A stretch of 64,000 bases of DNA from a virus. Both the position numbers and the translations under genes were made by a program. Location of the stretch: the IMG/VR virus record IMGVR_UViG_3300017963_000209, positions 43,065 to 107,064 of that record; one strand, given 5' to 3'. Below are positions 23,579-63,384 of the stretch, in pieces; position 1 is the first letter of the stretch, and every line of letters starts with the position of its first letter. Under the pieces are notes generated by a model. It did no database searches. It saw only the letters and a list, made by a program, of their open reading frames with translations, and was not told the origin of the DNA.

Positions 23579-24059
23579 CCACCAGTGTGAGGACTCGGGT
23601 CCTCCGCCCGAACTGCCGGCCGATTTCGATTCGCCGAGATACTGGAAGAGCTACTTCGAGAACAAGTACGGAGAGCAGTGGCTCTGCTACTACGATCGCG
23701 ACGAGAAGCAGCTCGTTGTCCGGGGCGGCGATTGCGGGTGGGAAAAGGTCTTGGAACCGTTCCGGATCTCCGTGGACACGCTTTGCAATTCGACTGCGGA
23801 CGGGCTGGAACAGCAGTTCTTGTTGGCCGGGAAAGCCTTGGTTCCCCAGCTTATCGCGGGAGAACCTAAGGGGCTCATTACCGTCTGGATCGACAAGGAG
23901 CGCGGTACCGGGATCACGCTGAACTCCGGTGAGAACATCTGGCTCGATGCCTGCCTCGACGCCTGCGGATTCGACGTTCCGATGAAGAACGCAAAGGAGT
24001 TTGAGGAATACCTGGACAAGTGCCGGGCAATCGTCGGAGAAGAAGACGACGAGGACTAA
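23553..24059 (+). CDS. Hypothetical acidic protein
   Basis: A 168-residue protein starting at GTG 23553 seven bases after AAGGAG. The visible pattern is a globular acidic protein ending in EEDDED. No motif is recognised. The gene sits directly upstream of the second PP-loop protein, separated by ten bases. Confidence 0.65.
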   Translation: MSILFSVNNHQCEDSGPPPELPADFDSPRYWKSYFENKYGEQWLCYYDRDEKQLVVRGGDCGWEKVLEPFRISVDTLCNSTADGLEQQFLLAGKALVPQLIAGEPKGLITVWIDKERGTGITLNSGENIWLDACLDACGFDVPMKNAKEFEEYLDKCRAIVGEEDDED

Positions 24060-24069
24060 GGAGCAGTCA

Positions 24070-25104
24070 ATGCAACAACCTATCGTCGTGGCTCACGGTG
24101 TCGGCCGAGACTCCACGGCGATGCTGATTCGGATGTGGAAGCTCGGGCAACGGCCGGATGCCATCTTATTCGCGAACGTCGGCTCCGAGAAGCGGCAGAC
24201 CTACGAGTTCATTCCCGTCTTCCGGGAGTGGCTCAAGAGCGTCGACTTTCCCCCGCTGACGATCGTGCAGTACGCGCCCAAGCTGGCGCCGTACTTCAGC
24301 CTCGAAGGCAACATGGTGCTCAACGCCACGTTACCCGGGGCGACCTTCAACCGCGGCTCCTGCACCCTGAAGTTCAAGGTGGAGCCGCAGAACAAGTGGA
24401 CCAGGCACTGGGTTCCTGCTCAGCGTGCCTGGGAAGCGGGCCTCAAGGTCCGCAAGCTGATCGGTTTCGATTGCGACGAGGAATACCGGCAGTCCCGGGC
24501 GGCCGACAAGGCCCATAAGGGAGCCGGCTCCAAGGACGCCGAGCGATACGAATACGACCATCCGCTCATCGAGTGGGGCATGGGCCTGGAAGACTGCAAG
24601 GAGGAGATCGCCTCCGTAGGTCTGCCTGTGCCTTGCAAATCGGCCTGCTATTTCTGCCCCAACCAGAAGGAGCACGAGGTCGACGAACTGGACCCGGAAG
24701 ACCGGTCCAGGATCATTCTGATCGAGCTGGTCGCTGAGCCTTACAACCAGAAGGTTCACGGTTTGTGGCGGAGGCCGCGAAAGCGGGACAACCGCCCCGG
24801 GTCGATCACTCAATACATCTTGGAGCGCGAGCTTCCCTTCGTGCCTCTGCACGAGATCTGCTCCAAGGTGGTGCTCAACGAGCACTGCAAGAAGGTCAAG
24901 GTGGACGGCGAGTACACCTTCGATCCTCCGCATCAACCCGACACGCTTCGCAAGCTGCTGGAGCATCATGGCCACCGGCCCCCGGAGGTCGTGCTCCCCG
25001 GCAGCAACGGCGTGGACGTGCCTGGGATCTATCTCGAAGATGCTCGTAAGGCCCCTCAAGACGACGAGGATGAGCTGCACGAATACTTCGAGGGTGCACT
25101 GTAA
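24070..25104 (+). CDS. Divergent PP-loop / PAPS-reductase-like protein
   Basis: A 344-residue protein. The N-terminal strand and loop IVVAHGVGRDST (5-16) occupy the place of the PP-loop SGGKDS, but the lysine is Arg13 and the first glycines are altered. A downstream NVGSEKRQTYEF matches the region that follows in PAPS reductases. C-x2-C (CYFCPNQ) near 195 may bind zinc or an iron-sulfur cluster. With the canonical PP-loop protein upstream it could form a two-subunit modification enzyme. Whether it still binds ATP is unclear. Confidence 0.7.
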   Translation: MQQPIVVAHGVGRDSTAMLIRMWKLGQRPDAILFANVGSEKRQTYEFIPVFREWLKSVDFPPLTIVQYAPKLAPYFSLEGNMVLNATLPGATFNRGSCTLKFKVEPQNKWTRHWVPAQRAWEAGLKVRKLIGFDCDEEYRQSRAADKAHKGAGSKDAERYEYDHPLIEWGMGLEDCKEEIASVGLPVPCKSACYFCPNQKEHEVDELDPEDRSRIILIELVAEPYNQKVHGLWRRPRKRDNRPGSITQYILERELPFVPLHEICSKVVLNEHCKKVKVDGEYTFDPPHQPDTLRKLLEHHGHRPPEVVLPGSNGVDVPGIYLEDARKAPQDDEDELHEYFEGAL

Positions 25105-42070: not shown

Positions 42071-42868
42071 ATGGCCGTGCGGATTGCCTTCGTCTGTCCC
42101 ACGTACAAGGAGACAGAACTCCACGCTTACACGATGGCTTGCCTTCACTCTTTCTTCCAGCACACGAAAGACGGGCTGGCGATCGTGGTCGATGATGCCA
42201 GTACCGGCTGGACACAGGCACTAGCCAAGAAGCTGGCCGACACCCCGATGTTCCCAGGTCAGCAGTGCGAGGTGCTTCGCTTCAAGAACTGGGGCGGCCT
42301 GACTCGCTCCTGGAATCTGGGGTTGAAGAAGGCCAGCGAGCTGAAGGCCGACTACGCAATCGCCGGCAACAACGACGTGCTCTTCACGCCCCGGTGGTAC
42401 GAAGGGTTGATGCTGGCCTTGGAGCACGGCTACCACTTGGCGGGTCCGGTCTCCAACGCCCCGGGAATTACGGCCCGGGGGCTTGCCGAGGTCTGGCGGT
42501 ACCATCCAAGCTACGAGGTCAAGGACGACCCCAACTATCTGAAGCAGGTGGCGGAGTACCTGCGAGGAGAACACGCGGGGACGTTGATCGAGGCCAAAGT
42601 CAATGGCTTCTTCCAGTTCGCGAGGATGCGAACCTGGGAGGCCGGCAAGTTCGACGCCGATCACTACTATCGGCCCCGCAACGACTTCAACAGCAAAGGG
42701 AAGCGCAATCCCACGCCGTTGATGACGCTCAACGAGGACGAGTTGCAGGGTCGGTGGCACAGGAAGGGCTGGAAGAGCGTAGTCGTTCCTTCCTCCTTCA
42801 TCTTCCACTACCGGGCCGTGACTCGCGGGAAGAAACATACCCAGGGTCGCTGGTTCCGGAAGAAATGA
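42071..42868 (+). CDS. GT2-family glycosyltransferase
   Basis: A 265-residue protein. RIAFVCPTYKE begins the nucleotide-binding strand, AIVVDDAS (near 38) is the GT2 DD motif, and GNNDVLF near 100 matches the DxD-like metal site. No membrane segment is present, so it acts in the cytoplasm. It lies between the portal and two further glycosyltransferases, suggesting glycosylation of virion proteins or host glycans. ATG 42071 is chosen because the family N-terminus begins there. Its stop overlaps the next start. Confidence 0.82.
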   Translation: MAVRIAFVCPTYKETELHAYTMACLHSFFQHTKDGLAIVVDDASTGWTQALAKKLADTPMFPGQQCEVLRFKNWGGLTRSWNLGLKKASELKADYAIAGNNDVLFTPRWYEGLMLALEHGYHLAGPVSNAPGITARGLAEVWRYHPSYEVKDDPNYLKQVAEYLRGEHAGTLIEAKVNGFFQFARMRTWEAGKFDADHYYRPRNDFNSKGKRNPTPLMTLNEDELQGRWHRKGWKSVVVPSSFIFHYRAVTRGKKHTQGRWFRKK

Positions 42869-43572
42869 TCACCGTCTACACCTGCGTCACGGGCCGCTAC
42901 GACGACCTCGTCTGGCCGCTCGAAGCCCAAGCCGTCAACGATCCGCAGGTGCGGTACATCTTCTTCGTGGACAACGTCCCCGAGGGCCACATCTGGGAGA
43001 TGGCCAAGGCCAGAGGCTGGCAGTTCCAGGAGCTGGCGTGGAAGCATGAAGATCCCACCCGCAGCGCCCGCTTCCACAAGATCAACCCCGATCTGGTCCT
43101 GCCCGAGGATACGGAGATCTCCATCTGGATCGACGGCTCGCAACAGTTCAAGGACACTATTCATCCGCGGCGGTTGGCCACCAAGGCAACCGAGAAGGTC
43201 TCCATCGCCACCTTCCGCCACCCCCTGCGGAGGTGCGTCTACGAGGAGGCCAAGGCCTGCGTGCAGCGGGAGAAGGACGATCCCGAAGTTATTCGCAGCC
43301 AGATGGCCCGCTATCGGGAGCAACTGTATCCTAGAAACAACGGGATGGTGGAAACGGCGTGTGTCATCCGCCGCCATGACAAGCTGGCGACGAGGTTCTG
43401 CGAGGCGTGGTGGCACGAGATCAGCACGGGCAGTCGACGGGACCAACTGAGCTTCAACTTTGTACACTGGAGACTGGGCATCCCCTACGGGACCATTCCC
43501 GGCCACAGGGAGGATTCCCCGTTCTTCAACTTCCAGCACCACAGGCACATGCGTCGAAATGTCAAGCGTTAG
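42865..43572 (+). CDS. TOD1/MUCI70-type (DUF616) glycosyltransferase
   Basis: A 235-residue protein. ITVYTCVTGRYDDL and FFVDN resemble the start of DUF616 proteins, and SIWIDGSQQF (88-94) matches their conserved WIDG metal-binding motif. These are GT-A-type glycosyltransferases best known from plants and also found in bacteria. It overlaps the neighbours by 4 and 14 bases. Donor and acceptor are unknown. Confidence 0.75.
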   Translation: MITVYTCVTGRYDDLVWPLEAQAVNDPQVRYIFFVDNVPEGHIWEMAKARGWQFQELAWKHEDPTRSARFHKINPDLVLPEDTEISIWIDGSQQFKDTIHPRRLATKATEKVSIATFRHPLRRCVYEEAKACVQREKDDPEVIRSQMARYREQLYPRNNGMVETACVIRRHDKLATRFCEAWWHEISTGSRRDQLSFNFVHWRLGIPYGTIPGHREDSPFFNFQHHRHMRRNVKR

Positions 43573-44572
43573 CATCTTCACACCGTACCGGCGGGGCGAG
43601 ATCACGGCCGCAGCGCTGCGGCTGGCCGATTTCTGCCTTGCAAGGGGCCTGGATCTCAAGCTCAATGCTCTCGGGCCGGTCGAGAAGGACGTCCATCCCT
43701 TCTGGGACGACCGCGTCCGGGCCAAGGCGGACTCGGACTCCTCGACCTACGCCGTGTCGTTTTCCCGTGACACCCCTCAGTACAAGGCCACGAAACACTT
43801 GCTGGCGATCCCGCCGCATCGCCTGGTTCCCTTGACGGAGGCCGTGCGGGCTGCCGGTCTGTTCGATACTGTCGTGCTTCCTTCCCGGCAGTCGATGGAC
43901 GCCCTGGTGGCGACCTCCCCGGAACTGGCGCCTGGATTGGCCTGGTGTAGCTGGGATGCCGGCGTAGAGCCTGTCTGCCGCTCCGGAACGGTCGAGGAGG
44001 ACCGCATCAAGTTCTACGTGCCGATGGGTCCTGACGCGATCAACGCCGGCGGTCTGTTCATTCTCAACGTGCTCAAGGAGCTGCTCATGCGGCGCTCCGA
44101 CGTTGACGTGATGATCGACTCGGATCGGTTGTGGGACAAGCGTGGCCGCAAGATGATCGTGGACATGGCTCGTAACTGGCCCAAACGATTCATCTCGATC
44201 ATCCGTTCGCCGTTGACGGTTCAGCTCCAGTGGCTTCATCGCCACGATTGGACTTTCGTCACGGACGTGAGAGCGGGGTTCGGGCTCATGCTGGGACGCT
44301 CCCTGGCCTGCGGAGCCCCGGTGATCGCCTACGACGTGCCACCGTGGTCCGACCTGGTCTGCCCGGGTCACCACGGGATGCTGATCCCTTGCGAGCACAG
44401 CATCTCGGTACCTTGGTCCCCCGTTGCGATCCCCACGTTGGGTCCGACCGTCGATGCCTTGTTGCGGGCTACCCGCGAGCAACTGGCTCTCTGCCGCACG
44501 AAGCAGTGGGGGTTGGAGCTGCGGAAAGCAGCCTTCGAGCGGTTCTGGGCGGGGCAATTTGAGGTCGACTGA
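43559..44572 (+). CDS. GT-B-type glycosyltransferase-like protein
   Basis: A 337-residue protein. The overall plan resembles GT4-type enzymes: VSIFTPYRRGE at the N-terminus and a C-terminal half with IRSPLTVQLQWLHRHDWTFV and GLMLGRSLACGAPVIAYDVP, the usual donor-binding segment, though the typical ExFGxxxxE glutamates are not obvious. It is the third glycosyltransferase in a row. It overlaps the preceding gene by 14 bases. Confidence 0.7.
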   Translation: MSSVSIFTPYRRGEITAAALRLADFCLARGLDLKLNALGPVEKDVHPFWDDRVRAKADSDSSTYAVSFSRDTPQYKATKHLLAIPPHRLVPLTEAVRAAGLFDTVVLPSRQSMDALVATSPELAPGLAWCSWDAGVEPVCRSGTVEEDRIKFYVPMGPDAINAGGLFILNVLKELLMRRSDVDVMIDSDRLWDKRGRKMIVDMARNWPKRFISIIRSPLTVQLQWLHRHDWTFVTDVRAGFGLMLGRSLACGAPVIAYDVPPWSDLVCPGHHGMLIPCEHSISVPWSPVAIPTLGPTVDALLRATREQLALCRTKQWGLELRKAAFERFWAGQFEVD

Positions 44573-44624: not shown

Positions 44625-44834
44625 ATGATCAACAAGGACAGGATCACGGAGATGGCGATCAAGGCGGCGGCGTATCGCTCGCCGGTCTTGGTTCCCCCTA
44701 AGCGAACCACGTCCCACTCTCGCACCATCAAGGTGCGGAAGAAGAAGAAGGACGAGAAAGAATCCCAGGAGGAGTTGCGGCGCTCCACCGGGAATGTTCA
44801 ACCGCCGCATCGCTACGGAAGGAAAGTCCGATGA
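44625..44834 (+). CDS. Small basic protein upstream of tubulin-like gene
   Basis: A 69-residue, lysine/arginine-rich protein (KVRKKKKDEK). ATG 44625 has a perfect AAGGAGGT five bases upstream. It overlaps the tubulin-like gene by 4 bases (ATGA), so the two are translationally coupled. Partition systems of TubZ type have a small DNA-binding adaptor (TubR) next to the tubulin, but no winged-helix pattern is seen here; the link is speculative. Confidence 0.65.
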   Translation: MINKDRITEMAIKAAAYRSPVLVPPKRTTSHSRTIKVRKKKKDEKESQEELRRSTGNVQPPHRYGRKVR

Positions 44835-46201
44835 GTTCCGTCCCTGGCTCCTCCGGCGAGTTCGGACCCAAGCCTAGACAGAAACCCAAGAAGCCCGCGC
44901 CCGATGCCGCCATGAAGAAGTCGTTGGCCGCAGCCAGCAAACCCATGGCACCGGTCCCGCCGATCGCTCCCGAGCCGCCCAAGCCTCCGAAGCCGCCCAA
45001 GCCGGCGGAGCCTCCGGCGAAGAAAGCGGATGACCCCGGAGACGTCGCGTCTCGCTGGGTGCCGGCGGCCCGCCGCCAGGCCTCCAAGACCATCCCGTAC
45101 GTTGAGGACGACTTCGACTACGACGTGGCGTTCGGTCTCTCCTTCGTTGGAGTCGGCCAGGGCGGCGGCCGGATGTCCAACAGCTTCTACGAGCTGGGCT
45201 ACCGCCGGACGGCTGCCCTCAACACTACTGAGGCCGACTTCGACGGCCTGCCCGACGCCATGCAGAAGCACAGCTTCGACGTGGGCGGCGCCCGCAAGGA
45301 CGCCCGTTTCGCTGCCGAGCAGGTGGACGGCCGCGAGGAGGAGATCTGGGAGCTGCTGACCCGGGCCTGGGGCAACACCTTCGACTACGGCCTGGTCTGC
45401 ATCGGACTGGGCGGCGGCTCGGGCTCCGGCATGGGGCCGCAGGTCGTGCAGATCGCCCGCCAGTATATGGAGGACAAGGGATTGCCTCCTCGGGTAGGAG
45501 CCATCATCTCCCTGCCCACGATGGCCGAGGGACAGCAGGTGGCCCGCAACGCCGTGCAGGCCTTCCAGGCTTTGCTGAAGATGGGCACTAGCCCCTTGAT
45601 CGTGATCGACAACGCTCGCATCCAGAGCGTCTACCGGCCGCCCATGGCCAAGCTCTACGGCACGGCCAATGACATGGTGAGCCAGTATCTCCACCTCTTC
45701 AACCGCCTCTGCGAAGCGCGGCAGGCCCAGATGACCTTCGATCGCTCCGAGTTCGCTCAGATCCTCGACAGCGGCATCGTGGTGATGGGGGCGGCCCCGG
45801 TGGGCACGGTCGATTCGATCGACAGCCCGGCCGACATCGCTCAGGCGATTCGTGAAGAGCTTACCAACAACGTGTTGGCGGAGGTCGACTTGCGGACGGG
45901 GCACGTGGGTGCCTGTCTGTTCGTGGCCAACGATGCCGCCCTGAACACGTTTGACTTGGAGTATTTCAACGCGGGGTTCTCGCAGCTCCGTCGTACCCTG
46001 GGCACCAAGAGCAAGGAGGACCCCGTCCTGCACCGCGGCCTCTACGAAGGCAGCGGCGACGGCATTTCGGTCTACTCCATGATTGGTGGCCTTCAGCCCC
46101 CGGTGAAACGCTTGACGGCCCTGGCTCGCGAGGCCGGCCTCAACAAGCACGATTCCCCGTCCAAGATGGCCAGCTTCCTGGGCATCGACGACGCGGTTTA
46201 G
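44831..46201 (+). CDS. Tubulin/FtsZ-superfamily GTPase
   Basis: A 456-residue protein. Residues 1-95 are Pro/Lys/Ala-rich and disordered. The GTPase domain has GVGQGGGRMS (107-116), the tubulin signature GGGSGSG (194-200) and a T7-like acidic segment FDRSEF with D304 and E307, matching the FtsZ NxDxxD catalytic loop. It is not a close FtsZ, PhuZ or TubZ by eye. Phage tubulins (PhuZ) centre viral DNA in jumbo phages; TubZ segregates plasmids. Position among virion genes favours a phage cytoskeleton role. The long Pro-rich N-tail is unusual, since most relatives have C-terminal tails. Confidence 0.88.
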   Translation: MSSVPGSSGEFGPKPRQKPKKPAPDAAMKKSLAAASKPMAPVPPIAPEPPKPPKPPKPAEPPAKKADDPGDVASRWVPAARRQASKTIPYVEDDFDYDVAFGLSFVGVGQGGGRMSNSFYELGYRRTAALNTTEADFDGLPDAMQKHSFDVGGARKDARFAAEQVDGREEEIWELLTRAWGNTFDYGLVCIGLGGGSGSGMGPQVVQIARQYMEDKGLPPRVGAIISLPTMAEGQQVARNAVQAFQALLKMGTSPLIVIDNARIQSVYRPPMAKLYGTANDMVSQYLHLFNRLCEARQAQMTFDRSEFAQILDSGIVVMGAAPVGTVDSIDSPADIAQAIREELTNNVLAEVDLRTGHVGACLFVANDAALNTFDLEYFNAGFSQLRRTLGTKSKEDPVLHRGLYEGSGDGISVYSMIGGLQPPVKRLTALAREAGLNKHDSPSKMASFLGIDDAV

Positions 46202-58454: not shown

Positions 58455-58799
58455 ATGATGGCAGCGCTGTTCAAGTGGTTGGCGCAGTGGGCCTTGAAGG
58501 CCGGGGCCAACTGGCTGGCCGGCTTTCTCCTGTACTACTATCGCAAGTGGATGCGGGAGCTGGCCAAGGAGCGGAAGGAGATCCGCCGGGCGCTGATGCG
58601 GCGGATGACCAGGCAGGAAGTCCACGACTGGAACGCGAGGGCGATCATCGAGTCGGCAGGCTGGGTCGGAGGCAGCTACACGGAGCGGGACATCCGTGAG
58701 ACGGCGCTGAACGCCCACGCCGACCAGTTCCGCGAACCCCAGATCGCTTTCATGAAGCAGCGGATCGAGGAGACGGCCGACGACGAGTTCACGTTGTGA
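58455..58799 (+). CDS. Small membrane-anchored charged protein
   Basis: A 114-residue protein, ATG 58455 with AAGGAGG upstream. An N-terminal hydrophobic region (ALFKWLAQWALKAGANWLAGFLLYYY) is followed by a highly charged helical part. Possibly a spanin- or holin-like lysis protein, but no diagnostic motif. The stop overlaps an alternative GTG start of the next gene. Confidence 0.6.
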   Translation: MMAALFKWLAQWALKAGANWLAGFLLYYYRKWMRELAKERKEIRRALMRRMTRQEVHDWNARAIIESAGWVGGSYTERDIRETALNAHADQFREPQIAFMKQRIEETADDEFTL

Positions 58800-58807
58800 G
58801 GAAGCTA

Positions 58808-59440
58808 ATGAAGGTATTCTGCGTTGGAGCCGGCCGCACGGGCAGCTTGTCCCTCTCGCTGGCCTTGAAGCGGCTGGGCTACAACGTGGCCGGCCAGGCC
58901 AAACGCTACGCCCTCATCCAAGACTGGGCCGTGCGGCGCTGGGGTCCGCTGCTGGAGCACTGCCGCACGGCCGAGGCCTTTCACGACGCCCCTTTCAGCC
59001 ACCCCTTCACCTATGTGGTGTTGGACCAGGCGTTCCCATCGAGTAAGTTCATTCTCACGGTAAGGGACTGCTCCGCGCAGTGGTACAAGTCGCTGGTGGG
59101 CTTCCACTCCGTCCTCACTGCGGACGGCAAACGAACGCCCACGGCGGACGACTTGAAGGCTTTTGCCGGTGGCTGGTTGTACCGCACGGTGAAGATTCTC
59201 CGGGACGTACCGGACGACGATCTCTACAACCGGGAGACGTGCATCCGCTACTATGAGCGCCACTGCGAGAGCGTCCGGGAGTATTTTCGTTTTCGCGAGG
59301 ACCTGCTGGTGCTGAACGTGAGCGAGGAGGATGCCTTCCCCCGGCTCTGCCGGTTCCTGGACAAACCCGTCATCGAGGAGCCGTTCCCTCACACAAACTC
59401 CACCGCCGCTTGGCGAGATCATATACAGGGGAAGCAATGA
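58808..59440 (+). CDS. P-loop sulfotransferase-like protein
   Basis: A 210-residue protein. VGAGRTGSLSLSLALKRLG (6-24) matches the 5'-phosphosulfate-binding loop of Sulfotransfer_4-type proteins, and FILTVRDCSAQWYKS (81-95, R86) is the 3'-phosphate loop. Such enzymes use PAPS to sulfate sugars or other acceptors. It starts the glycan cluster; GAGGAAG precedes ATG 58808. Acceptor unknown. Its stop overlaps the fusion gene (ATGA). Confidence 0.82.
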   Translation: MKVFCVGAGRTGSLSLSLALKRLGYNVAGQAKRYALIQDWAVRRWGPLLEHCRTAEAFHDAPFSHPFTYVVLDQAFPSSKFILTVRDCSAQWYKSLVGFHSVLTADGKRTPTADDLKAFAGGWLYRTVKILRDVPDDDLYNRETCIRYYERHCESVREYFRFREDLLVLNVSEEDAFPRLCRFLDKPVIEEPFPHTNSTAAWRDHIQGKQ

Positions 59441-61017
59441 GCGCCGACGTCGACATCGTCATCATCTCCTGCGGCAAGCTGCCGCATCTCCGCAAGTTCA
59501 CGCAGGGCGCCATCGCGAGCTGCCGAAAGTCGTCCGACAAGCTCATCTTCAACATCACCGTGGTCGAGACCCACGAGGACGGGGAGAAGGAGTACGAGGG
59601 AGCCGACCGCACGGTCTTCTGGGTGCCTTCGGACGGGCAGTTCAACTACAACCGCGTGCTGAACTTCGGCACCCACTTCGGCGATGCACCCTACGTGGTG
59701 CACGCCAACAACGACCTGCGATTCCACCCGCACTGGGCGGAACGGCTGATCCAGACAATGCAGAAGTACAAGATCCGCAGCGTCTCTCCCCGCTGTCCCC
59801 GGCACGCCGAGCAGAAGAAGTTCCGCGGCCAGAAGGAGCCGGCCTACGGCTATGCGATCCGCCAGGAGATGTCCGGCTGGTGCGTGATGATGGAGAGGTC
59901 GCTCTGGCGTGAGCTGGGCGGTTTGTGGGAAGATGTGCCCTACTGGTACTCGGACGTGATGTACGTCGACCAGCTCCAGGCGGCCGACGTGAAGCATGCC
60001 CTGGTGCCGCTGAGCCTGGTGACGCACTGGGCCAACCGCACGACGCGGAAACTGCCCAAGGAGCCTCGCCGGGAGATGACCCAGGGCGCCAAGCCCCACT
60101 ACCAGAAGGCCAAGAGAATCCGAGCCGCCACGATGACCAGCCCCTATGCCAACCTCGGCTTCGCCAAGGAGAACGTCCCCGGCAAGGAGCTGAGCACGCT
60201 GAAGATCGGCGGCCCCCTGCGTCATGTCCTCCGCCCCAACAACCTGGAGTCGCTGAAGAAGGCCTGCTTGCGGGCCGACGACCGCGACGACCCCGTCCTC
60301 ATGCTGGGCGGCGGCAGCAACATCCTCTTCCCCGACGAAGGCTGGCCCGGGCTGGTGATCCTCACCAAGGATCTCAGCCACTTCCACATGGAAAACAAGC
60401 TCGCCGTGGCCTGGCCGGGGCTGATGTACGCCAGCTTCCTCCGCCAGGCGGCCCTGCGCAACCTGGCCGGCGTGTTCCAGATCGCCCACGTGCCGGGGAC
60501 GATGGGTGGCAGCGTGGTGATGAACGCCGGTTTCGGCCCCACGGAGGGCAAGGACATCGCCAAGTACCTGGTCCGCGTGGAGGTCTTCAACCGCGAGAAA
60601 GCCAAGACGGTAACGCTCACCAAGGAGCAGTGCCAGTTCGGCTACCGCACGAGCATCTTCCGCGGCCGTCCCGACCTGCTGGTGCTGCGGAGCTACTTCA
60701 CCTTGCCGGCGATGGACCGCAAGGCTGCTGAGTCGACGATCGTCTCCTCCCAGAAGAGCGCTGCCAAGTTCATCCGGGCCTGCGGCCAGGGCTGTCCCAA
60801 CGCCGGCAGCGTGTTCATTCACACGAGCTACGACCCTCCCAAGGGCGTCAAGGGGATGAACCGGGGCGGCGCCTGCTGGTCGGAGACCAACCCCAACTGG
60901 ATCAACAATCTCGGAGGAGCGACGGCCGCCGACGTCAAGTGGCTGATCGACGAGGCCAAGCGTCTCTGCAAGGAGCAAGGAAAACCGGAACCCGAATTGG
61001 AACTGATCGTGGTATGA
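59437..61017 (+). CDS. Glycosyltransferase-MurB fusion protein
   Basis: A 526-residue protein. Residues 1-230 are GT2-like (DIVIISCGK; HANNDL near 85). Residues about 255-526 match MurB, the FAD enzyme reducing UDP-GlcNAc-enolpyruvate to UDP-MurNAc: FAD site LGGGSNILF (290-298), PGTMGGSVVMNAG, GYRTSIF with R404, PNAGS with S458, and the C-terminal glutamate in ELELIVV (E520 or E522). These correspond to the Arg, Ser and Glu catalytic set. I know of no such fusion. Whether it makes MurNAc or another lactyl sugar is open. ATG 59437 overlaps the previous stop; the next gene overlaps its stop. Confidence 0.9.
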   Translation: MSADVDIVIISCGKLPHLRKFTQGAIASCRKSSDKLIFNITVVETHEDGEKEYEGADRTVFWVPSDGQFNYNRVLNFGTHFGDAPYVVHANNDLRFHPHWAERLIQTMQKYKIRSVSPRCPRHAEQKKFRGQKEPAYGYAIRQEMSGWCVMMERSLWRELGGLWEDVPYWYSDVMYVDQLQAADVKHALVPLSLVTHWANRTTRKLPKEPRREMTQGAKPHYQKAKRIRAATMTSPYANLGFAKENVPGKELSTLKIGGPLRHVLRPNNLESLKKACLRADDRDDPVLMLGGGSNILFPDEGWPGLVILTKDLSHFHMENKLAVAWPGLMYASFLRQAALRNLAGVFQIAHVPGTMGGSVVMNAGFGPTEGKDIAKYLVRVEVFNREKAKTVTLTKEQCQFGYRTSIFRGRPDLLVLRSYFTLPAMDRKAAESTIVSSQKSAAKFIRACGQGCPNAGSVFIHTSYDPPKGVKGMNRGGACWSETNPNWINNLGGATAADVKWLIDEAKRLCKEQGKPEPELELIVV

Positions 61018-61922
61018 AGAAGACTAAGCGTTGCGTCGAACTCTTGACCGTTGGCCTGTGGCACGACTCGGTGGGCGACATCGCCCTGATGCAGGCCACG
61101 GCCCAGCAGCTTTCCATCCGCGGCGTCCCCGTAATGTGCCGCAGCATCTCCACTGGAAGCCGGCCCTGCGTGGTGGGAGGCGGCTACCTGCTGTCGAACA
61201 TCACCAGCGGCATGTGGAGCCACGTCCTAAGGCCCTTCCAGGTCCGCGGCGGCCACTTCCTCAACGCCGTGGGCGTGGGCGGCAGGGGAGACTACGGCTT
61301 CGTCGGGGACTGGAAGTATGTCTCCGTGCGTGACCATGTCAGCCGCGACTTCCTCGCCCCCTCGCTGCCCAAGGACAAGGAGATCCACCTCGTTCCCTGC
61401 CCGGCCGTGTTGTTGGAGGTGCCCAACGTCACCTACCTGCGGCGCTGTCCCGGCGGCGAGGTGATGAAGGATCTGCCGCTCCAGGGCTTCGTGGTCGTGG
61501 ACTGCGAAGCGGAGTGGGCCCACGGCAAGATCAAGGAGCCGCTCTTGCCCCTGGACACGCGGCCCTGGATGAAGAAGGGCTGGCTGGGCAAGCCGCTGCG
61601 CAACCAGACGCGGTCCCCGGAGATGATGATGGGGATCATGAAGTGCGCCAAGGCGGTGATCACCGAGAGCCTTCACATGTCCATCATGGCGATGGCCGTT
61701 GGGGTGCCCTTCGTCGTCTCCGCCAGGGGAGGCACGGCTGCCAAGCCGGCCGCCTATTTCAAGCGGGCCGGCATCCCGGAGATCGTCGTCAAGCCCAACG
61801 CCAACATCGTCAACCAGGCTTTGGAGCTGCACACCAAGATGCTGGCGGTCCGCAAGCTGGAGCAGGATCGGGCCCGCAAGCATCTCGATGCCATGGTGGA
61901 GCTGATGGATGAGCCCGTTTGA
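61014..61922 (+). CDS. Polysaccharide pyruvyl transferase-like protein
   Basis: A 302-residue protein. The early SVGDIALMQA motif and the late ITESLHMSIMAMAVGVPFV match the GT-B-like polysaccharide pyruvyl transferase family, which moves pyruvate from phosphoenolpyruvate to sugars as a ketal. It directly follows the GT-MurB gene, which also deals with an enolpyruvyl-derived group. It overlaps neighbours by 4 and 14 bases. Confidence 0.75.
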   Translation: MKKTKRCVELLTVGLWHDSVGDIALMQATAQQLSIRGVPVMCRSISTGSRPCVVGGGYLLSNITSGMWSHVLRPFQVRGGHFLNAVGVGGRGDYGFVGDWKYVSVRDHVSRDFLAPSLPKDKEIHLVPCPAVLLEVPNVTYLRRCPGGEVMKDLPLQGFVVVDCEAEWAHGKIKEPLLPLDTRPWMKKGWLGKPLRNQTRSPEMMMGIMKCAKAVITESLHMSIMAMAVGVPFVVSARGGTAAKPAAYFKRAGIPEIVVKPNANIVNQALELHTKMLAVRKLEQDRARKHLDAMVELMDEPV

Positions 61923-62424
61923 TGGCCGTACGATCGACGAAGAGGAGTTTGGGATCATCGCCAGGCTCGTCCGCGAGCTGGCGATCGAGTCCGTCGTGGA
62001 GTTCGGGATGGGTGTGTCGACGCATCTGTTCCGGACGCTGAAGTTCTATGCCGGCTTGGAGACGCACGAGCCCACGATCGCCTGCTTCCCCGAGCTGGAT
62101 AGGGCCGGCAAGGTCTACCGCGTGGATCTCTATAGGGAGGTCAAGCTGCTTCCGGTAAAGATGACCGTCGACCTGGTCTTCGTCGACGCCCCCGAGGCCT
62201 GGGACGAGACGATGCTGCACGAAAGTTGCGCCCGCTTCTTCCCTGTGCAGGCGGCTGCGGAGATCGCCGAGATGATCATCATGCACGACACCAAGCGGGA
62301 GGGAGAGCGGGCCACGATCTCTCGCTTGCTGGGTGATTGGACGGAGAAGCGGTTCGATACTGCACGCGGTCTATCGTTGTTCAACAGAAAGAGGAAGAAG
62401 TCATGTGGCTCTGTACCCGAGTAG
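61909..62424 (+). CDS. Methyltransferase-fold-like protein
   Basis: A 171-residue protein. LAIESVVEFGMGVSTHLF near 30-45 resembles SAM-binding motif I, and VDLVFVDAPEAWDE near 86-99 resembles motif IV of class I methyltransferases. IIMHDTKREGE fits a cephalosporin-hydroxylase or FkbM-like glycan methyltransferase. Small for the family. It lies in the glycan cluster. Overlaps the next gene by 22 bases. Confidence 0.6.
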   Translation: MSPFDGRTIDEEEFGIIARLVRELAIESVVEFGMGVSTHLFRTLKFYAGLETHEPTIACFPELDRAGKVYRVDLYREVKLLPVKMTVDLVFVDAPEAWDETMLHESCARFFPVQAAAEIAEMIIMHDTKREGERATISRLLGDWTEKRFDTARGLSLFNRKRKKSCGSVPE

Positions 62425-62733: not shown

Positions 62734-63384
62734 ATGTTCTTCTCCTACGCCCACAAGCTGCTGTTCGTCCATCCGCCCAAGTGCGGCGGCTCCTCGATCG
62801 CGCAGATCCTGGCCCGGGCCACGGGGGCCAGGGAGAACGCCCTGGACATGGAGCCGGAGCTGCCCAAGCTCTGCTCCGTGAGGCTAAAGCACCTGCCCGC
62901 CAAGGCCATCAAGGAGCTGCTGCGCAACGACCCGCTCTGGGATGAGCTGTACATCTTCACCACGGCCCGCAACTCCTGGGCTCGCTTCGTCTCGCTCTAC
63001 TTCCACCTGCGGGAGAAGGTGCCCAAGAACTTCGGCGGCACGCCGTTCCACCGGCAGTTCGTGGCGGACGCCCAGCGTTACGGTTTTCGTCACTGGCTGG
63101 ACAAGTACCTGGGCGGCCCCTACTGCGAGTCATTGGCCTTCTACGTGATCGGGGAAGGGCGTAAGCTGTTGGTCGATCGGATCTTCCCCGAGCCTTGGAA
63201 CGACGACGTCCGTAACGCTCTCAGGAGTCTGGGATTGAATACCCCGGCGCAGATGCCCGTGCTCAACCGGAGAAGGAAGAGCCGCAAGCACTACAGCGAC
63301 TACTACAACACTCCACTTCGCCGCAAGGTCCGCAAGGCGTGTGCCTGGGAGATCGAGCGGTTTGGCTTCACTTTCGACGAGTGA
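62734..63384 (+). CDS. Sulfotransferase family 2-like protein
   Basis: A 216-residue protein. FVHPPKCGGSSI (11-22) is the PAPS-binding 5' loop of Sulfotransfer_2-type (carbohydrate) sulfotransferases, and FTTARNSWARFVSLYF (75-90, R79) the 3' loop. It would sulfate a sugar in the same cluster. It is unlike the first sulfotransferase and so is not a recent duplicate. It starts one base after the previous stop. Confidence 0.82.
   Translation: MFFSYAHKLLFVHPPKCGGSSIAQILARATGARENALDMEPELPKLCSVRLKHLPAKAIKELLRNDPLWDELYIFTTARNSWARFVSLYFHLREKVPKNFGGTPFHRQFVADAQRYGFRHWLDKYLGGPYCESLAFYVIGEGRKLLVDRIFPEPWNDDVRNALRSLGLNTPAQMPVLNRRRKSRKHYSDYYNTPLRRKVRKACAWEIERFGFTFDE

What the first reader, a model, noticed from the sequence alone, without database searches (positions are those of the whole stretch)
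59437..61017. Glycosyltransferase fused to a complete MurB domain
One polypeptide joins a GT2-like domain and MurB with FAD site, R404, S458 and C-terminal Glu in place. MurB belongs to peptidoglycan precursor synthesis and is not expected in a phage. The fusion suggests channelled synthesis and transfer of a lactyl/MurNAc-like sugar, possibly to a virion or surface glycan. The next gene is a pyruvyl transferase, another user of enolpyruvate chemistry.
Basis: partly seen in the sequence, partly recalled or inferred. Interest (0 to 1): 0.8.

Follow-up and report, generated by a model that had tools for sequence, protein, structure and literature searches.

The report
Phage sugar-transferase fused to MurB-like reductase
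A bacteriophage carries one gene that joins a sugar-transferring enzyme to a relative of a cell-wall enzyme, next to a pyruvate-adding enzyme, and the same reductase–pyruvate enzyme pairing recurs in bacteria and even an archaeon without peptidoglycan, which suggests a little-described way to put lactic-acid groups on surface sugars.

Summary
Window 59437-61017 is one uninterrupted 526-aa frame: an N-terminal GT2-like domain of a phage glycosyltransferase family and a C-terminal MurB-fold FAD domain with the catalytic Arg404, Ser458 and C-terminal Glu in place. GC3 and codon usage are the same in both halves and in the next gene (polysaccharide pyruvyl transferase, ATGA overlap). A chimeric assembly is therefore unlikely.
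The domain is not a peptidoglycan MurB. It misses the curated MurB equivalog cut-offs and has a shortened loop before the catalytic Ser. It lacks a His found in 123 of 124 other MurBs. I found five cellular MurB-like proteins encoded beside, near or fused to a polysaccharide pyruvyl transferase (Paracoccus, Novosphingobium, Cetobacterium, Levilactobacillus, and the archaeon Natrinema). All five also lack that His, whereas four MurBs paired with MurA keep it. The phage domain groups with Natrinema and Cetobacterium (support 85/92).
Best explanation (inferred): the pyruvyl transferase puts an enolpyruvyl group on a sugar, the MurB-like domain reduces it to a lactyl (1-carboxyethyl) ether, and the fused GT adds or acts on that sugar, in an anionic-glycan island with two sulfotransferases. 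No activity was tested.

The parts
59437..61017 (+). GT2-like / MurB-like fusion protein (526 aa)
   Evidence: single open frame with an SD-like stretch before the ATG; domain hits; fold; uniform GC3 and codon usage
59437..60120 (+). Glycosyltransferase domain (residues 1-228), ANND and SGWC motifs shared with Gordonia and Mycobacterium phage GTs
   Evidence: phrog_22332 4e-33; tblastn to Gordonia phage Keelan 5e-30; alignment A7 with invariant NND, SGWC, W-x-SD, V-x-H
60154..61014 (+). MurB-like FAD domain (residues 240-526): GGGSN, PGTMGG, MNAG (FAD), YR404, NAGS458, C-terminal EPELE (catalytic), N485 in place of a nearly invariant His
61014..61922 (+). Polysaccharide pyruvyl transferase (302 aa), start codon overlaps the fusion's stop (ATGA)
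   Evidence: PF04230 9e-16, over the curated cut-off in the genome search; overlap seen; GC3 matches the fusion
58796..59440 (+). Sulfotransferase, stop overlaps the start of the fusion gene
   Evidence: PF17784 1.2e-28
61909..62424 (+). Small protein, SAM-methyltransferase-like by eye only (function unproven)
   Evidence: no Pfam or PHROG hit; ORF overlaps the end of the pyruvyl transferase
62734..63384 (+). Second sulfotransferase-like gene
   Evidence: phrog_3347 galactose-3-O-sulfotransferase 7.8e-7; PF03567 weak

Best explanation
The gene encodes a bifunctional glycan-decorating enzyme, working with the translationally coupled pyruvyl transferase downstream. Proposed steps: (1) the PF04230 enzyme transfers a C3 unit from phosphoenolpyruvate to a sugar hydroxyl and leaves an enolpyruvyl (vinyl) ether; (2) the MurB-like FAD domain reduces that vinyl ether to a lactyl (1-carboxyethyl) ether with NAD(P)H, using MurB chemistry on a sugar that is not UDP-GlcNAc; (3) the fused GT2-like domain adds the sugar to be modified, or the modified sugar, to a growing glycan. 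With two sulfotransferases next door the product would be a strongly acidic glycan on the virion or on the infected host's surface. Shown here by sequence: the fusion, both domains, intact catalytic and FAD residues, the coupled pyruvyl transferase, the recurring MurB-like/pyruvyl-transferase pairing, and loss of a MurB-invariant His in all paired members. Inferred: every enzymatic step, the order of steps, and the acceptor.
For: Pairing: a MurB-like domain is fused to PS_pyruv_trans in Paracoccus aestuarii pAES7 (Pfam), overlaps it in the archaeon Natrinema pellirubrum and Novosphingobium P6W, lies directly after it in Cetobacterium somerae, and one gene away in Levilactobacillus brevis. All lie among glycosyltransferase, flippase or polymerase genes, except that L. 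brevis has only a flippase between IS elements. No such neighbour was found at 110 genomic MurB loci. Signature: His at P0001 position 485 is present in 123/124 other MurBs and 4/4 MurA-paired MurBs, absent in 6/6 pyruvyl-transferase-paired ones. The six do not form one clade (p-AU 0.047), so the association and the His loss probably arose more than once. Phage + Natrinema + Cetobacterium group together (SH-aLRT 98; 85/92). Catalytic Arg is kept in all six and Ser in five (Thr in L. brevis). No MurA homologue on the contig. Chemistry: MurB reduces an enolpyruvyl to a lactoyl ether with conserved Arg-166/Ser-239/Glu-335 (PMC3689657). Literature: Klebsiella K8, K22, K37 and K66 have pyruvyltransferase genes but no pyruvate in the capsule (PMC4616057), and K22 carries 4-O-[(S)-1-carboxyethyl]-GlcA (title of Parolis 1988) with the same sugars in K37 (PMC7246685).
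Against: No biochemical data. Known PF04230 enzymes form pyruvate ketals, and enolpyruvyl transfer by this family is an inference. The phage pyruvyl transferase has a GGG-type motif rather than the GSDQxW-like motif of the paired enzymes (alignment), so the phage pair was not inherited intact from one of them. Three of the five pairs were opened because their annotation said 'FAD-binding protein' and one because it said 'polysaccharide pyruvyl transferase', so the frequency is biased; only L. brevis was opened without such a hint. The phage clade is only moderately supported and rests on long branches. Whether Klebsiella K22/K37/K66 loci carry a MurB-like gene was not tested.
Confidence: 0.5

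Rival explanations
1. The domain is a working MurB that reduces UDP-GlcNAc-enolpyruvate supplied by host MurA, and the fused GT transfers MurNAc (or a derivative) from UDP-MurNAc to a glycan: the first reader's channelling idea.
For: MurB fold and catalytic residues intact. Second MurA+MurB pairs do occur in polysaccharide clusters beside GT genes (Rhizobium, Qingshengfaniella, Haematobacter, Agrobacterium), so MurNAc-type sugars in surface glycans are plausible.
Against: Those MurBs keep the invariant His and pass the TIGR00179 cut-off (167-191 bits), while the phage domain does neither (129.4 bits; N485). The contig has no MurA and the adjacent gene is a pyruvyl transferase.
Confidence: 0.17
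2. The pyruvyl transferase makes ordinary pyruvate ketals; the MurB-like domain is a separate flavin enzyme acting on another sugar intermediate, adjacent only because all these genes belong to a glycan-modification island.
For: Characterised PF04230 enzymes are ketal pyruvyltransferases (PMC6801904). The phage island mixes unrelated modifying enzymes (sulfotransferases). The phage PF04230 protein differs in motif from the paired ones.
Against: The same two families pair in five other organisms across four phyla, once as a fusion, and MurB catalytic residues for vinyl-ether reduction are kept.
Confidence: 0.2
3. A degraded or structural remnant: the MurB-like domain has lost activity and serves only as a binding or oligomerisation module for the GT.
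For: Long branch; shortened substrate loop and lost His.
Against: Catalytic Arg, Ser and Glu and the FAD motifs are all retained after deep divergence, at about 35% identity to the nearest MurB.
Confidence: 0.08
4. An assembly or frameshift artefact joins two separate genes.
For: One contig only; no second contig carrying the fusion was found.
Against: A single frame with uniform GC3 and codon usage, coupled start and stop signals, and related phage GTs that are also fused to modifying domains (methyltransferase-GT in Lucky2013).
Confidence: 0.03

Closest known systems
MurB, UDP-N-acetylenolpyruvoylglucosamine reductase (type II; PF01565 + PF02873, TIGR00179)
   Same: Fold (4pyt TM 0.84), FAD motifs, catalytic Arg/Ser/Glu
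   Different: Under all equivalog cut-offs; invariant His replaced by Asn; shortened substrate loop; fused to a GT; no mur genes nearby
MurB-like 'FAD-binding protein' paired with polysaccharide pyruvyl transferase (Natrinema, Cetobacterium, Novosphingobium, P. aestuarii, L. brevis)
   Same: Pairing with PF04230, loss of the same His, glycan gene context; the phage groups with Natrinema and Cetobacterium
   Different: The phage domain is fused to a GT; the order is reversed (reductase upstream of the transferase); its PF04230 protein has a different motif type
Phage GT family phrog_22332 (Gordonia and Omega-type Mycobacterium phages)
   Same: GT domain 32-38% identical with shared NND/SGWC motifs; also fused to another domain: methyltransferase in Lucky2013 gp17, near the major capsid gene
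   Different: No MurB-like partner in any; here the extra domain is C-terminal
MurA+MurB pairs in exopolysaccharide clusters (Rhizobium, Haematobacter, Agrobacterium, Qingshengfaniella)
   Same: MurB recruited away from peptidoglycan, near GT genes
   Different: True MurB by cut-off with the His kept; partner is MurA, not PF04230
Glucolactilic-acid O-antigen genes of Shigella boydii 17 (Senchenkova 2006; only the title was seen)
   Same: The title reports two genes for a lactyl-ether sugar, matching a two-enzyme route
   Different: The gene identities could not be read or compared here

Membership tests
MurB (UDP-N-acetylmuramate dehydrogenase) | FAD_binding_4 and MurB_C domains, MurB fold | tested here: met
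   PF01565 over cut-off, PF02873 at cut-off; 18 best structural matches all MurB
MurB (UDP-N-acetylmuramate dehydrogenase) | Catalytic Arg, Ser/Cys, Glu | tested here: met
   R404, S458, E520 or E522
MurB (UDP-N-acetylmuramate dehydrogenase) | Score over a curated equivalog cut-off | tested here: not met
   TIGR00179 129.4 against 144.5; NF010480 145.4 against 259
MurB (UDP-N-acetylmuramate dehydrogenase) | Nearly invariant His in the S-x-x-H-x-N-F motif | tested here: not met
   N485; His in 123/124 other MurBs
MurB (UDP-N-acetylmuramate dehydrogenase) | MurA partner or peptidoglycan gene context | tested here: not met
   no EPSP-synthase/MurA family match on the contig; neighbours are sulfotransferases and PF04230
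MurB (UDP-N-acetylmuramate dehydrogenase) | Reduces UDP-GlcNAc-enolpyruvate | not testable with these tools
   needs enzyme assay
MurB-like partner of polysaccharide pyruvyl transferase | Gene adjacent or fused to PF04230 | tested here: met
   ATGA overlap with the PF04230 gene
MurB-like partner of polysaccharide pyruvyl transferase | Loss of the MurB His with catalytic residues kept | tested here: met
MurB-like partner of polysaccharide pyruvyl transferase | Common descent with other members | tested here: inconclusive
   groups with Natrinema and Cetobacterium (85/92) but the six are not one clade (p-AU 0.047)
GT2-like phage glycosyltransferase (phrog_22332) | Profile match and NND motif | tested here: met
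   4e-33; ANND, SGWC, W-x-SD invariant in three proteins
Polysaccharide pyruvyl transferase (PF04230), downstream gene | Match over gathering score | tested here: met
   58-59 bits against 25.3
Polysaccharide pyruvyl transferase (PF04230), downstream gene | PEP-dependent pyruvyl or enolpyruvyl transfer | not testable with these tools
   needs enzyme assay

The most novel reading that the evidence does not exclude
A polysaccharide pyruvyl transferase plus a MurB-derived reductase form a general two-enzyme route to lactyl (1-carboxyethyl) ether sugars, assembled more than once in bacteria and archaea, and this phage has captured it and fused the reductase to a glycosyltransferase to make an acidic, lactylated, possibly sulfated glycan on its virion or on the infected cell.
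Probability: 0.42. Interest if true: 0.8.

Novelty: new variant of a known kind. Interest (0 to 1): 0.62.

Why it matters
MurB is treated as a peptidoglycan-only enzyme, and automatic annotation calls some of these relatives 'murB' or 'FAD-binding protein'. A sequence signature (loss of one His) and a partner gene that separate a glycan-modifying group from true MurB would correct annotation. They would also give a testable route to lactyl-ether sugars, known in capsules such as Klebsiella K22 and in O-antigens. They would explain why an archaeon without peptidoglycan has a MurB relative, and would add a glycan chemistry to phages.

Tried and rejected
Hits of the MurB domain in the 'phages' collection were unannotated UNVERIFIED fecal or wastewater contigs or contigs annotated with bacterial MurB; I treated them as likely bacterial contamination and not as phage MurBs. 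Four pattern scans of IMG/VR for the MurB domain or the whole protein and scans with the pyruvyl transferase and GT found no relative; these need short near-exact peptides, so absence is weak evidence. The genome scan returned true MurBs only. 118 Bacteroidota genomes gave no PF04230-paired case among the best 30 matches. I first thought loss of an Arg after the catalytic Glu (E-x-R) and of a Lys before the catalytic Ser marked the group; a wider count showed both vary in ordinary MurBs, so I dropped them. R445 (invariant in others) looked lost in three members, but the loop is gapped and a nearby Arg may substitute, so I make no claim. A distant DNA search of E. coli genomes with the Cetobacterium pair found nothing. 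No terminase or capsid family was recognised, so the virion target is unidentified.

Full report
OBSERVATION. Window 59437-61017 is one open frame of 526 aa on the + strand. The ATG follows an SD-like stretch (caggggaagcaATG), and the stop TGA overlaps the ATG of the next gene, a PF04230 polysaccharide pyruvyl transferase at 61014-61922. The N-terminal ~228 residues match the phage glycosyltransferase family phrog_22332 (4e-33). Their closest annotated relatives are glycosyltransferases of Gordonia and Mycobacterium phages (mostly 30-38% identity), with the ANND, SGWC and W-x-SD positions invariant in the three proteins aligned. Residues ~240-526 match MurB: NCBIfam MurB models at 1e-37 to 2e-42, solved MurBs to 2.7e-26, a confident AlphaFold2 model of that part, and 18 MurB structures as the 18 best structural matches.

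IS IT AN ARTEFACT? GC at third positions is 0.909 in the GT half, 0.905 in the MurB half and 0.904 in the pyruvyl transferase, against 0.78-0.86 in most other genes tested (the second sulfotransferase has 0.88); codon usage agrees. The fusion and the pyruvyl transferase therefore look like one compositional unit. The relative in mycobacteriophage Lucky2013 (gp17, near the major capsid gene) is also a fusion, of a methyltransferase with this GT. The contig is a 107-kb IMG/VR record with a phage-type replication module (helicases, DNA polymerase, thymidylate synthase, UvsX, methyltransferase). A collinear relative exists in IMG/VR for the replication genes (L105), but that 48-kb contig does not contain the fusion. 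The host is unknown.

IT IS NOT A PEPTIDOGLYCAN MurB. The domain falls below every MurB equivalog cut-off (TIGR00179: 129.4 against 144.5 bits). No MurA/EPSP-synthase homologue is on the contig. PHROGs has no MurB family matching it, and no annotated phage genome in the collection has a MurB-like match that looks viral.

THE PAIRING. A tblastn of the domain against plasmids led to MurB-like genes tied to a polysaccharide pyruvyl transferase. In Paracoccus aestuarii pAES7 one 845-aa protein carries both PF04230 and MurB domains. In the archaeon Natrinema pellirubrum the genes overlap. In Cetobacterium somerae they are adjacent, in a capsule or O-antigen-like cluster. In Novosphingobium P6W they overlap by 4 bases. 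In Levilactobacillus brevis they are separated by a flippase. A different arrangement, MurB with MurA in polysaccharide clusters, occurs in Rhizobium, Qingshengfaniella, Haematobacter and Agrobacterium. A profile of the pyruvyl transferases found none at 110 genomic MurB loci. Bias: four of the five pairs were opened because an annotation hinted at them; L. brevis was not.

THE SIGNATURE. In an alignment of 134 MurB homologues, position 485 of the phage protein is His in 123 of 124 other MurBs and in all four MurA-paired ones. It is Asn, Gly, Thr, Thr, Gln and Ser in the six pyruvyl-transferase-paired proteins. It is the only well-conserved column that separates the paired group completely from both others. 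The catalytic Arg is kept in all six and the catalytic Ser in five, with Thr in L. brevis. Five of the six fail the TIGR00179 cut-off (phage; the other four and the exception, L. brevis), and all four MurA-paired MurBs pass. The phage domain groups with Natrinema and Cetobacterium (SH-aLRT 98; bootstrap/SH-aLRT 85/92, not decisive, long branches). The six together are rejected as one clade, narrowly (p-AU 0.047), so the pairing and the His loss probably arose more than once. I do not know what the His does.

MECHANISM (INFERRED). MurB reduces an enolpyruvyl ether to a lactoyl ether through FAD, with Arg, Ser and Glu (PMC3689657). A MurB-like enzyme that keeps this machinery but sits beside a PEP-dependent pyruvyl transferase most simply reduces an enolpyruvyl ether made by that neighbour, giving a lactyl (1-carboxyethyl) ether on a sugar. 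Independent support comes from Klebsiella: capsule types K8, K22, K37 and K66 carry pyruvyltransferase genes but have no pyruvate (PMC4616057), while K22 contains 4-O-[(S)-1-carboxyethyl]-D-glucuronic acid (title of Parolis 1988 in PMC3857182) and K37 has the same sugars (PMC7246685). From memory K66 also carries the lactyl ether. I could not check whether those loci hold a MurB-like gene. A 2006 paper title reports two genes for glucolactilic acid in Shigella boydii 17, but I could not read which genes.

IN THE PHAGE. The island also has two sulfotransferase genes (58796-59440 and 62734-63384), so the expected product is a very acidic glycan. The target may be a virion protein: related GT genes sit near the capsid gene in an Omega-type mycobacteriophage, and capsid glycosylation is reported for cluster F mycobacteriophages (PMC11256854, citing Freeman 2023). 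It may also be the host surface. I cannot choose between them. The phage pyruvyl transferase has a GGG motif instead of the GSDQxW-like motif of the paired ones, so the phage pair was assembled separately or has diverged far.

VERDICT. It works like a MurB reductase, but I do not file it as a MurB because defining tests (equivalog cut-off, invariant His, peptidoglycan context) were not met. Interest lies in the GT fusion in a phage and, more, in the recurring pyruvyl-transferase/MurB-like pair with its own signature residue.

Noticed in passing
window 44831-46201: Tubulin/FtsZ-like GTPase (PF00091 6.7e-12) encoded by the phage; the comparison with known phage tubulins was not made.
   Followed up: no
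window 42265-43572 and 43460-44572: Two further glycosyltransferase-like genes: TOD1/MUCI70-type (PF04765 3.6e-18) and a weak GT group 1 match.
   Followed up: no
window 24001-25104: Phosphoadenosine phosphosulfate reductase family gene (phrog_424); may relate to sulfur or DNA modification rather than to the sulfotransferases.
   Followed up: no
L015, L016, L020, L137: Second MurA+MurB pairs inside exopolysaccharide clusters on alphaproteobacterial plasmids; their MurBs form a well-supported clade (100/100) with a distinctive NGGSQRKG motif in three of them, and suggest MurNAc-type sugars in exopolysaccharide.
   Followed up: partly
L104:5079-6792: Burkholderia cenocepacia plasmid MurB next to a carbamoyltransferase and a NUDIX gene, not in a peptidoglycan context.
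   Followed up: no
L105 (IMGVR_UViG_3300017990_000023): Collinear relative of this phage across the replication module (DNA polymerase 67% identical) from another metagenome.
   Followed up: partly
L124, L127-L135: Several Bacteroidota MurB open frames run to 537-655 aa, with ~200 or more extra residues, usually C-terminal, of unidentified nature.
   Followed up: no
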